Shown here piece after piece: positions 27,101 to 42,100 of a stretch of DNA of 64,000 nt (its first letter is position 1; every line of letters starts with the position of its first letter). The position numbers and the translations under genes are program-made. A model generated the notes under the pieces. It was not told the DNA's origin and made no database searches. It worked only from the letters and a program-made list of their open reading frames with translations. Location of the stretch: NCBI GenBank assembly GCA_944474755.1, contig OX104117.1, forward strand, positions 65,339,522 through 65,403,521, in the 5' to 3' direction. This DNA comes from Limnoperna fortunei (taxonomy: Eukaryota > Mollusca > Bivalvia > Mytilida > Modiolidae).

Positions 27101-30100
27101 AATAAAAATTTCCAAGTGAATTGAAATAAACAGTCCCAAGTGACGAGTAAAATAGTCCAAAGTGAATAGTAGAATGCTATTTTATTTTTGTATTTCATAT
27201 TTCTTCAGAAGGTCGCATAACCTAACAAGGCAAAAATATACACCAATTCAAAATTGTTAAAGAAATCAATTATCGGATACTTACAATCTGGTCCTGTCAG
27301 GTCAATAAATGGGGCATCTGACATTCTCATTAGAAATAATCTGAATTAAAAGAAATATATCAGATAAACTTGATTTCAGTTTTATATATGTGTTAATTAT
27401 TATAACATTAGAAAAGAATTAAGCTCATTTAATTACTATGCAATTAAAATACCTGTGAATTGTGTAAAGAACACACCGTCCCGTCCTTAATCTTCAGTGA
27501 CAACTTTTCAAAGAAATTTGGTATAAAACTATTTACAAAAAAGCAGACCAACCAAAACATTGTTGGACCATTGGTCACGACCAGTAAAAAAATTGGGGTT
27601 CAACGTTTTGAAATAAAGTAATGGACCTAACGCCCACTGACAATTTAGCAAGCAGTAGTATAATAAATTTAACAAACATACAACTGTGCACACAGAAAAA
27701 TGTCTCAATTTCATTCTGCAGCATATTAAAAAAATTACATCATGTTGTTGTTGTTTTGACAATTGATTAATAGCACTACCTTAACCAATCAGCCACCAGG
27801 GGGCAGGCTTCACATATGGTAGTGCACTTACTTGTTTATATAGGGATCAATCAGTGATGATGTTGGTGATACTCTGCCTGATGTATTTTTCTGCAAACTA
27901 CCTGAAAAAACAAACAAAATATAGTAAACTTCTCTTAACTTTCCAACACTGGGATGAAAACTAGAGGCTACCAGGAGCAAATTTTTGCTCACCAGACAAA
28001 ATAAAATTTAAAATTGGTAACAGTATTCCTGGTTTTTTAGCAAAGCTGCAATATATGATGTGTTATTCCTTTCATTTGTTAATTAAATTTTGTATGTACA
28101 ATGATTTGAATGTGAGAACTTTCCAACGGGATATATTTTTATTTGATTTTTATCAAAAGAAGCATAAAATATATCTTTAGGCTGTAAAAAATCTTTCAGA
28201 AAAGGTTTACTGCAAGATGAAGCCAATTAAACCAATGAAAGATTTTCTTAATTTTTTGTGGGCAATCAAGTTGGACAACATGGCTATTAGATACAGTTTG
28301 TGTAAGAGACTTAATGCTAATTTTTGTTTGTAATTGTCCAACAGATTAAAATGCAAAAAGTTACTTTACATACAATTTAAGAAAACTGCAAGAAAGTCTG
28401 AATTGCCAGGATGCAAAGCAAGTACCTTAAAAAATGGAAAATTGTTAACAATTCGTTGAAAGAAAATTTGGGTTTGATATAAACAGAGTTAATTACACAA
28501 AAAACAGTACTATCATCTGAAAATTGTTATCAAGTCTGGAAAAATGTGAAAAATTTTTCTTTAACAATTCCATAATAGCAGTTGCACAACTTCAATACAT
28601 GTGCAATCTTTCAGTAAAGTTTCATGTATCTAGGTTAAAGTTGCAAGATGAGTTGAGAACACAAAATATGTACCATCCTCACAAGTCAGAGTTTCTGCGT
28701 CCACGAAACCCTGACAAACTTAGCTAGGAAATTCCCAAGCTAGAAGTCAATATTTTGATTGGCTACATCATACCTCAATGTAGCCAATCAAAAGCTCGCT
28801 TTCATTCACGACTTGGTTAGGGGATATCCCGATGTCGATTGTAAATAAACCAAAAGGGTGTGTTGCATAGACCACGTGAAAATCAGTGAATTTTGTACAG
28901 TGTGTTAATAGTTTGTTATTACCCCGTTATTTATTACAAGTTGCATTAGGTGTTCTTCACACTCAAGAATCAGTAAAAATGACTACACATGTACAGCCAA
29001 TCACTTGCTTCTTTCAAGCAGTTTCATTAGTTGATATTTTCAAGGTTTGATGTTATATGAAAATCTTCTAGCCCGGGACTTTCTTAGATAAGTTTGTCAG
29101 GGTTTTGAGGACACATCATGTCATGTTGACACAGAAACCCTGACTTGTGAGGATAATTATGTACCCTTTTTGGTAAAATTTGCTGAAAAATTCTCAAGCC
29201 TAAAAAATGATAAATGATTTCTTATACAATTCCATAATAGAAGGTGCTCATTTTTAAAATGTCTGCAATGTTTTTGTGAATTTTTTTTCAAGGATCAGGA
29301 TTGAAAGCTGTTTATATTATATATAAAACTTGACCTACCTAGATAATTAGACATACTGATGTAACATAACCCTGTTATATATATAAAACCTTGACCTACC
29401 TAGATAATTAGACATACTGATGTAACATAACCCTGTTATATATATAAACCTTGACCTACCTAGATAATTAGACATACTGATGTAACATAACCCTGTTATA
29501 TATATAAAACCTTGACCTACCTAGATAATTAGACATACTGATGTAACATAACCCTGTTATATATATAAAACCTTGACCTACCTAGATAATTAGACATACT
29601 GATGTAACATAACCCTGTTATATATATAAAACCTTGACCTACCTAGATAATTAGACATACTGATGTAACATAACCCTATTATATATATATAACCTTGACC
29701 TACCTAGATAATTAGACATACTGATGTAACATAACCCTGTTATATATATAAACCTTGACCTACCTAGATAATTAGACATACTGATGTAACATAACCCTGT
29801 TATATATATAAAACCTTGACCTACCTAGATAATTAGACATACTGATGTAACATAACCCTGTTATATATATATAAACCTTGACCTACCTAGATAATTAGAC
29901 ATACTGATGTAACATAACCCTGTTATATATATATAAAACCTTGACCTACCTAGATAATTAGACATACTGATGTAACATAACCCTGTTATATATATAAAAC
30001 CTTGACCTACCTAGATAATTAGACATACTGATGTAACATAACCCTGTTATATATATAAACCTTGACCTACCTAGATAATTAGACATACTGATGTAACATA

Positions 30101-39100: not shown

Positions 39101-42100
39101 AAATTTTCAAGGGGCATAACTCAATTTTGGAAGTGGAAAAATACTTGTGTGGAGTAACATTATTTCTATCTGACCTGTTTAAGTCAGAAGTATGTTAACA
39201 ACTTGAAGAGAGATAACTCTAACATTTTATAAAGATTGACTTAAACAAGTCAAAAAAAGTTCTGACTTGTTTGTGTCAGTCCCCTGACTGTAGATAATTA
39301 GACATACTGATGTAACATAACCCTGTTATATATATAAAACCTTGACCTACCTAGATAATTAGACATACTGATGTAACATAACCCTGTTATATATATAAAA
39401 CCTTGACCTACCTAGATAATTAGACATACTGATGTAACATAACCCTGTTATATATATAAAACCTTGACCTACCTAGATAATTAGACATACTGATGTAACA
39501 TAACCCTGTTATATATGCATCAAATCCTGCTTGGTGATGTTGTTCACCTGTGTTATAACTGCTGAAACCTTCTGCTAAATCTATAAAATAGAGTACCAGT
39601 AAGTTATTTAAAAAATTTAACTGCCACTAACAAAAATTTCGAATTGGGTAAGGCAGATAATGCATTTTGTAGCGATTACAATGCACACCTCTGCTAACCC
39701 TCCTAAAATATGTCACATCATATGGTCAACATCCAGGTTTCGTTGTAACCCAACAAACCACCACAATAATAGCATCTCATATCCACTAGTCAGCTTCATA
39801 GGTCATCCCACCCCAATAATATAAGAAGTCAAATAAATGGAAGTCATAAACATATTCATTTTTGGGTTCTTATAATTACATTTTTTATGAAAGATTTGCA
39901 TTCAAATTCAATTTAGTGTTAGATCAAAACTCTTCACAAAAGGAATCCTTTTCGTTTCTATTTTTAGCAATCAGTAGAGATTTACGTACCAACCTCGGGT
40001 TTACTAAATGGTGGAAATTCTAGAAACTTCTGAAGGTCACCTAGTGTTGTACTTGGAATTTTGTCCTACAAAAATTTAAAAATTAAAATGATTTATTCAA
40101 CAAAATTTACTTTACAATGGTGTCTTCAGGTACAGTCTGCTGTAAATATTTTACTTATTCTCAAAACCATGGAGTGAAAATATGGCAAGAATGTCTCCCC
40201 CAGATTGCTAAAGAATACACATATTTCTCACTTACATGACTCAAAACAAGACAGACTATGAAAAATAGCAAGGAAACAGACTAACAATAAGAGCTTAAAG
40301 TCAAGGTACAGTTACAAATCCAGATTTAGACAAAGATATACAACACAGAACGAAAACCAGACACAAAAAGAAAACATGAGTAAAATAAAAATAAAAATCA
40401 TAGGTACACTCACTCAGGTGCTCTATGTCTGCCTCTAACATGGACCAGCACTTAGTTGTGCTAAGTATACCCCCACTCAACCATTTTTCGGCTCGGAAGA
40501 CAGGAAGTAGATAACTGACTGACCTGGAAAGGGGAGCCATGGTACAACTCATGCTAAAGCTGTGCACCAAATTTGAAATCAATCTTTTTAGCAGAAGCTG
40601 AGAAATCTGTTACAAAAAATTTCCCTATTTTGACCGTTGAAAAAGTCTAAGTCAGCTAGGAAAACAGGAAGTAGATAACTGACTGATCTGGAAAGGGAAG
40701 GCACAGTAAAACTCCTCATGCTAAAGCTGTGCACCAAATTTGAAATCAATCCCTTTAGTAGAAGCCGAGCAATCAGTTACCAAAGTTTGTACCGGACGGA
40801 CAGCCATCCAAGGTGATTGCAATATAGCCCCCTCTCTTACGAGTAGGTGTATAATTAGACACCCATTGATGACTCATTGTCATGTCTAGGAAAAGGTCAA
40901 ATCCTGGAAAAGAATGACTACCTACCTATGACTCTGCAAAAACGCCAGATCGTATTTGGGAGTTGGATTAACCATAATGAGCAATTAAGTCATGTATATA
41001 AAAACTTCAAAACTAAAGACATAATTTTGTTAAATTTTATTAAAACTCAAATTTTTCCTTTTTCTAACAAACTATGTACCAAAAAAATATCTATTAAGTC
41101 TATGTTATTGTAAATTAGGGACAATCTTCTCATCCTTTATATCTTTTTTAATGATATATCAATATATAATGTACATTCTTTATAGATTACAAGAATAACA
41201 GGAGACAGTGTTTCACCAGAATTCTAAATGAAAAAACTGACTCCTTTGTGACCACAGTAAACCAACAAGAAAATTGTGTGGAACTATAAGTAAAATAAGT
41301 GTGTGTAAAATATTTTGTCCGTTACTATATTCATCCTCTGACTTAATACTGTTACGTTTGATTGTGCTGCACTGTGAGAGCAAGTTTTTTGTAAGTAAGT
41401 ATGTTACCTTAAATGGATTCATACTGCCCATCAACTTTGTATCTAATATTCTACAACATATAAACAAACAAAAGTTTTAATTTACAGCATAACCTGTGTA
41501 AGAAAATTCTAGGTGAAGTATATAACACCTGAGTCACCCCCCTGGATATAGTGATACCTCAACACATTATGTCATAAGGATATATAACACCTGAGTCACC
41601 CCCCTGGATATAGTGATACCTCAACACATTATGTCATAAGGATATATAACACCTGAGTCACCCCCTGGATGTAGTGATACCTCGACACATTATGTCATAA
41701 GGATATATAACACCTGAGTCACCCCCTGGATGTAGTGATACCTCGACACATTATGTCATAAGGATATATAACACCTGAGTCACCCCCCTGGATATAGTGA
41801 TACCTGGACACATTATGTCATAAGGATATATAACACCCGAGTCACCCCCTGGATATAGTGATACCTCGACACATTATGTCATAAGGATATATAACACCTG
41901 AGTCACCCCCTGAACACAGTGATACCTCGACACATTATGTCATAAGGATATATAACACCCGAGTCACCCCCCTGGATATAGTAATACCTCGACACATTAT
42001 GTCATAAGGATATATAACACCTGAGTCACCCCCCTGGATATACAGTCAAACCTGTCTTAAGTGACCTTTGAAGGGAAATTGTAAAAAAGGTCACATAAGA

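What the first reader, a model, noticed from the sequence alone, without database searches (positions are those of the whole stretch)
29316..39580. About 76 tandem copies of a PARN splice donor with its exon end
The repeat unit is the last 43 nt of catalytic exon 15 plus the GTAGGT donor and a TA-rich spacer. The exon is the first copy. RNA from this intron would carry some 76 near-identical 5' splice sites, yet reading through the first leads to a stop in the next unit. The gene therefore has to choose the first donor reliably, or use the array for regulated unproductive splicing of a deadenylase. I know of no described case like this.
Basis: partly seen in the sequence, partly recalled or inferred. 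Interest (0 to 1): 0.92.

Follow-up and report, generated by a model that had tools for sequence, protein, structure and literature searches.

The report
Seventy-six tandem PARN splice donors
In what is likely a mussel, the end of one exon of the RNA-trimming gene PARN and its splice donor are repeated 76 times in near-identical copies that run on into the next intron; this would make a natural test of how cells pick the right splice site, and is probably a tolerated DNA expansion rather than a switch.

Summary
On the minus strand of a 23-exon PARN gene (59383-9120, 615 codons open), the last 43 nt of exon 15 plus GTAGGT and an AT-rich spacer occur 76 times, 59-63 nt apart. All 76 donors are intact and are the only sites in the 11,571-nt intron scoring as high as exon 15's own. 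Later donors run into the same stop. Corrections: a 5,278-bp inverted-repeat element (TSD ATCTA) and a SINE split the array, so only donors 2 and 3 lie within 250 nt of the true one; donors 4-76 are over 5.4 kb away. The same gene holds a mirror case: six tandem copies of the exon 18 acceptor. An intronless relative, likely assembled RNA, matches 598 of 600 residues and shows the normal 15-16 and 17-18 joins. I read the array as a slippage-born minisatellite seeded at a splice junction and tolerated because the first of equal donors would win. Regulated unproductive splicing found no support here, though the test was weak. Copies also hold an acceptor-like AG and 33 open in-frame bases, so cryptic microexons are not excluded. 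The window's own genome could not be searched.

The parts
9120..59383 (-). PARN gene, 23 predicted coding exons, 615 codons without a stop
   Evidence: exons joined; PDB PARN match E 6e-169 for the exon 2-19 part; CAF1 and RNA_bind Pfam hits
39473..39580 (-). Exon 15 (108 nt), holds the stretch HHQAGFDAY; its last 43 nt (39473-39515) are copy 1 of the repeat
39467..39472 (-). True donor GTAGGT of exon 15
   Evidence: frame with exon 16 and P0002
39291..39516 (-). Proximal block of the array: exon copy, two full copies, one copy cut by the element; 100% identical
34013..39290 (.). 5,278-bp insertion with 44-bp perfect terminal inverted repeats and 5-bp target duplication ATCTA, inside a repeat unit
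29318..34012 (-). Distal block of the array, 73 donor copies
31931..32193 (-). SINE-like insertion, 263 bp (tRNA-like head, CAAACAAACAAA tail, 12-bp target duplication CATCAGTATGTC)
   Evidence: the SINE label is from recall, ARAGORN finds no tRNA in the window
27832..27901 (-). Exon 16, next exon after the array
25329..25703 (-). Second array: six 62-nt copies of the exon 18 acceptor (ACTTACAG) with 26 nt of exon start; first exonic bases at 25664, 25602, 25540, 25478, 25416, 25354
25268..25354 (-). Exon 18; its acceptor is the last of the six
22497..22514 (-). Exon 21, an 18-nt microexon of the same gene, present in the transcript-like relative P0002

Best explanation
The end of PARN exon 15 with its splice donor stands in 76 near-identical tandem copies running into intron 15 of what is likely a mussel gene, an array that was probably born by replication slippage and that splicing would tolerate by taking the first donor, leaving the 75 others as mostly silent decoys. 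Shown: an AT run lies in the exon (GCATATATAACA) and another in the intron just after the donor (TTTTATATATA); the repeat unit is the stretch between them, and the far end of the array at 29318 passes into non-repeated intron. Shown: length changes fall in the T/AT spacer, and the coding-derived 43 nt differ by 0.57% per site. Shown: a 5.28-kb element and a SINE-like piece landed inside units, so after the array. Inferred: the array can grow only towards the intron, because growth on the exon side would break the frame. Inferred: the first donor wins because it is transcribed first and sits closest to the exon 15 acceptor (first come, first served), and the element now keeps 73 decoys more than 5.4 kb away, so in practice only donors 2 and 3 compete. 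Rare use of those would give a stop and RNA decay.
For: Unit limits and spacing. Substitution and length variants. Target-site duplications showing that both insertions came after the array. Whole PARN frame open over 23 exons. P0002, an intronless 601-aa PARN from a 2,418-base contig, matches 598 of 600 compared residues and runs exon 15 to 16 and exon 17 to 18 normally. Of 17 tandem arrays that I merged by hand within 9123-55087 (the split donor array counted as two, four lying inside the 5.28-kb element), two touch an exon edge, against 3.5 expected for random placement, so no special targeting of splice junctions is needed. In reporter libraries built on native contexts, of two equal tandem donors the first is predominantly used, while acceptors show no such order rule (PMC6783452, section 7), which fits 76 donors against 6 acceptors in one gene.
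Against: P0002 is known only as a protein; its contig being RNA is inferred from the missing introns, it may come from a sibling species, and one contig cannot measure minor donor use. The reporter data are for two sites and not for molluscs, and that paper itself mentions earlier conflicting evidence. All 76 donors are intact while the unit shows 20 substitutions over 54 sites; zero in the 9 donor sites has p = 0.026, a weak hint that donors are kept. No relative's intron was available to date the array, so the far-end sequence being the original intron is an inference.
Confidence: 0.75

Rival explanations
1. The array is a brake: later donors are used at a regulated rate, adding a stop and sending PARN mRNA to nonsense-mediated decay.
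For: Later donors give the same stop at codon 418, with eight exon junctions downstream in the model; 76 intact donors, with a weak deficit of donor changes (p = 0.026).
Against: No read-through product in the word-based search of the 5.8-billion-protein collection: 2 candidates, both matching only the normal part, though such RNA would be unstable. Donors 4-76 are over 5.4 kb away, far beyond usual internal exon sizes (recalled).
Confidence: 0.08
2. Each copy is a cryptic in-frame microexon: AACAG acceptor, 33 open bases in phase, GTAGGT donor. Some PARN mRNAs would gain one or more 11-residue repeats GLCYISMSNYL.
For: 72 of 76 copies (the exon's own included) have acceptor, 33-nt open frame and donor; one, two or three such inserts keep the frame; over 73 copies in the intron the AG has a median score of 7.27, above 7 of 18 real PARN acceptors, and only 2.6% of the other 626 AGs of the intron score higher; the gene already splices an 18-nt exon.
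Against: No protein with the insert: 4 of 7 candidates passed the threshold, and all four are normal forms (sequences). Neighbouring copies are only about 28 nt apart, too short for an intron (recalled), so copies would have to be skipped. The AG lacks a real pyrimidine tract.
Confidence: 0.06
3. The donors serve as U1 snRNP binding sites that keep the polyadenylation machinery from cutting the AT-rich intron.
For: Intron 15 has 30 AATAAA: none in the repeat units, 27 in the inserted element, one in the SINE-like piece, two beyond the array; U1 on pseudo donors is reported to suppress intronic poly(A) sites within about 1 kb (PMC3826338, passages).
Against: 27 of the 30 signals came in with the later element; most donors lie downstream of it and beyond 1 kb. 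Nothing here measures U1 binding.
Confidence: 0.04
4. The copy number is inflated by assembly.
For: Near-identical 61-nt units are hard to assemble; raw reads were not available.
Against: Units carry individual substitutions and AT-run lengths, and two different insertions with proper target duplications break the array.
Confidence: 0.05

Closest known systems
Intron gain by tandem duplication across a splice junction (potato RdRp; PMC4974935, abstract and Results section seen)
   Same: A duplicated stretch spans an exon-intron boundary and carries splice signals with it.
   Different: One junction-spanning duplication there, giving a new spliced intron; here 76 copies on the donor side and 6 on an acceptor side, with no new exon in the one near-identical transcript-like sequence.
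Tandem alternative splice sites and two-donor competition reporters (PMC6783452, section 7 and passages seen; PMC8055015, search listing only)
   Same: Equal donors compete on one transcript; order decides.
   Different: Reporters hold two sites; here 76 natural ones, 73 of them now moved more than 5.4 kb away.
Intronic minisatellites (VNTRs; from recall)
   Same: 61-nt unit, head to tail, slippage-type length changes.
   Different: The first unit is coding exon with its working donor, so the array is anchored in an exon.

Membership tests
Minisatellite | Head-to-tail units of about 10-100 bp in many copies | tested here: met
Minisatellite | Copy number varies between individuals | not testable with these tools
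   one assembly only
Intron gain by tandem duplication | Duplicated segment spans an exon-intron boundary | tested here: met
Intron gain by tandem duplication | A new intron is spliced between copies, leaving new exon sequence in the mRNA | tested here: not met
   P0002 has the normal 15-16 and 17-18 joins; one sequence only
Regulated unproductive splicing | Alternative form carries a premature stop | tested here: met
   predicted from sequence
Regulated unproductive splicing | Alternative form exists in RNA and its share is regulated | tested here: inconclusive
   none found among proteins; no reads available
PARN deadenylase (host gene) | PARN nuclease domain and C-terminal RNA-binding domain | tested here: met
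   which residues are catalytic is recalled and was not tested apart
Genome-wide satellite family | Unit occurs at other loci | not tested
   search of the own genome did not complete

The most novel reading that the evidence does not exclude
PARN output in this animal is tuned by a splice-junction VNTR: copy number of a 76-fold donor array sets how often exon 15 runs into a stop, while its copies also serve as a store of some 70 in-frame 33-nt microexons that add repeats of GLCYISMSNYL to the nuclease domain.
Probability: 0.08. Interest if true: 0.88.

Novelty: new variant of a known kind. Interest (0 to 1): 0.58.

Why it matters
Donor choice between identical sites has been studied with pairs of engineered copies; this is a natural series of 76 with near-identical sequence over 43 exonic and 11 intronic bases, so position has to tell them apart. 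The same gene holds six near-identical acceptors where the last one has to win. Together they make a ready test of whether order on the transcript protects donors but not acceptors, and of how far coding sequence can seed minisatellites without harm. It would also warn annotators: gene finders and short-read mappers are likely to mishandle such junctions.

Tried and rejected
Special targeting of splice junctions by tandem arrays: 17 hand-merged arrays, 2 touch an exon edge, 3.5 expected by random placement (one very long block raises the expectation), so rejected as an explanation. RNA structure hiding the later donors: the fold of exon 15 plus the two following units is no better than shuffles, z = 0.02. 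Known RNA family at gathering score, or tRNA: none in the window. Higher-order repeat structure: unit-type matches at lags 1-29 run from 0.12 to 0.30 around the 0.23 expected. Unit in viral contigs: 0 exact matches. Read-through and insert forms in the protein collection: none. Print record: ten full-text searches showed no array of this kind in the titles and abstract starts listed; several lists were cut (for example 10 of 685, 15 of 65), the library lacks most subscription papers, and older two-donor competition work is known to me only by recall or from a reference list.

Limits: one search used a placeholder first base; its stop index 411 (counted from 0) is codon 418 of the full protein. 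The donor and acceptor matrices come from 17 sites each, and intron counts of strong donors cover introns 2-18 only. The 598 of 600 comparison leaves out P0002's first residue, M where the window has V.

Full report
What is there. The window carries a PARN gene on the minus strand. I mapped 23 exons from 59383 to 9120; joined, they give 615 codons without a stop. Exons 2-19 were set from tblastn hits and splice signals, exons 20-23 from the close relative P0002, exon 1 from a start-and-donor pattern. The exon 2-19 product matches PARN structures in the PDB at E 6e-169 and the CAF1 and RNA_bind families of Pfam. The nearest named relatives are Mytilus californianus and M. trossulus at 83% and 82%, so the animal is likely a mytilid mussel outside that genus; no call names it.

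The donor array. From exon 15 (39580-39473) into intron 15 there are 76 copies of a unit made of the last 43 nt of the exon, GTAGGTCAAGG and a T/AT spacer. Spacing is 59-63 nt outside two insertions. All 76 have TAG|GTAGGT. Against a matrix built from the gene's other donors, exon 15's donor scores 8.18, sixth of 18, and of 853 GTs in the intron exactly the 76 copies reach that score. Introns 2-14 and 16-18 have 0 to 3 such sites each. A later donor leads to the same stop at codon 418 (74 of the 75 later donors run).

How it arose. The exon has GCATATATAACAGGG and the intron, just after the donor, TTTTATATATA. The repeat unit is the stretch between these two AT runs, and at the far end (29318) the last copy passes into non-repeated intron, GTAGGTCAAGTTTTATATATAATATAAACAGC, which reads like the original continuation (inferred; no relative's intron was available). 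Slippage or unequal exchange between the two runs would make the first duplication (inferred). Among 74 comparable copies (two cut by insertions left out) there are 18 substitutions in the 43-nt part, 0.57% per site, while the T/AT spacer varies in length. The exon copy equals the consensus.

What broke it. A 5,278-bp element with 44-bp perfect inverted ends and a 5-bp target duplication, ATCTA, sits inside a unit; taking the flanks together restores a perfect unit. A 263-bp SINE-like insertion with a 12-bp target duplication, CATCAGTATGTC, sits in another. Both therefore came after the array. The element has a practical effect: donors 2 and 3 lie 61 and 122 nt past the true donor, but donor 4 lies 5,466 nt past it.

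A second case in the same gene. Upstream of exon 18 the acceptor with its pyrimidine-rich tract and the first 26 nt of the exon is repeated six times at 62 nt (25703-25329), with a few changes between copies. The true acceptor is the last copy. Each of the five earlier ones gives a stop in the joined model. So this gene has tandem donors after one exon and tandem acceptors before another, and in both the exon-nearest site has to win.

Is this targeting? There is no sign of it. Of 17 arrays that I merged by hand within 9123-55087, two touch an exon edge, against 3.5 for random placement. The split donor array counts as two of the 17, four lie inside the 5.28-kb element, and the one very long block raises the expectation. 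The region is simply rich in arrays.

Which donor is used. P0002 is an intronless 601-aa PARN from a 2,418-base contig, which for a gene with 22 introns is likely assembled RNA. It agrees at 598 of 600 compared residues and reads NYLG-SLQKN across the 15-16 join and GPD-LQPKRDHVFHV across the 17-18 join. A search for the read-through product gave two proteins, both matching only the normal part. Mikl and colleagues (authors' name recalled) report that of two equal tandem donors the first is predominantly used, while acceptors show no such preference (PMC6783452 section 7). That gives a simple reading of why a donor array could reach 76 copies and the acceptor array only 6; with one gene this is a suggestion, not a test.

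What remains open. The copies also hold AACAG followed by 33 bases that are open and in phase with exons 15 and 16: 72 of 76 copies, the exon's own included. Over 73 copies in the intron the AG scores a median of 7.27, better than 7 of 18 real acceptors, and the gene does splice an 18-nt exon. Thus in-frame microexons are possible; no protein with such an insert was found. The donor 9-mer shows no change in 76 copies; with 20 substitutions over 54 sites the chance of none in those 9 is 0.026, a weak hint only. Intron 15 and exon 16 also both start with GTAG, so a 4-nt shift of both sites would give the same mRNA.

Verdict. The most likely reading is a tolerated minisatellite that started on a coding splice junction.

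Noticed in passing
25329-25703: Six tandem copies of the exon 18 acceptor plus exon start, a mirror image of the donor array in the same gene.
   Followed up: yes
39533: Exon 15 codes CAA (Q) in HHQAGFDA where 119 of the 120 PARN proteins returned have E; the other one (P0026) did not match the motif used. Could be a variant or an assembly error.
   Followed up: partly
34013-39290: 5,278-bp element with 44-bp perfect inverted ends, 5-bp target duplication and many internal short palindromes; no complete open frame of 150 aa or more was listed there.
   Followed up: partly
22497-22514: 18-nt microexon of PARN, present in P0002.
   Followed up: yes
39469-39472 and 27898-27901: GTAG stands at the start of intron 15 and at the start of exon 16, so two pairs of splice sites would give the same mRNA.
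   Followed up: no
45478-46209: 243-codon open frame made largely of a 78-bp (26-codon) tandem repeat in intron 8 of PARN, on the gene's strand.
   Followed up: no
41519-42042: 61-bp tandem array ending 68 nt before the start of exon 13; the unit contains CAG|GTGTTA, a donor-like site.
   Followed up: no
18296-20582: Three separate arrays of the same 58-60 bp unit within 2.3 kb in intron 21.
   Followed up: no
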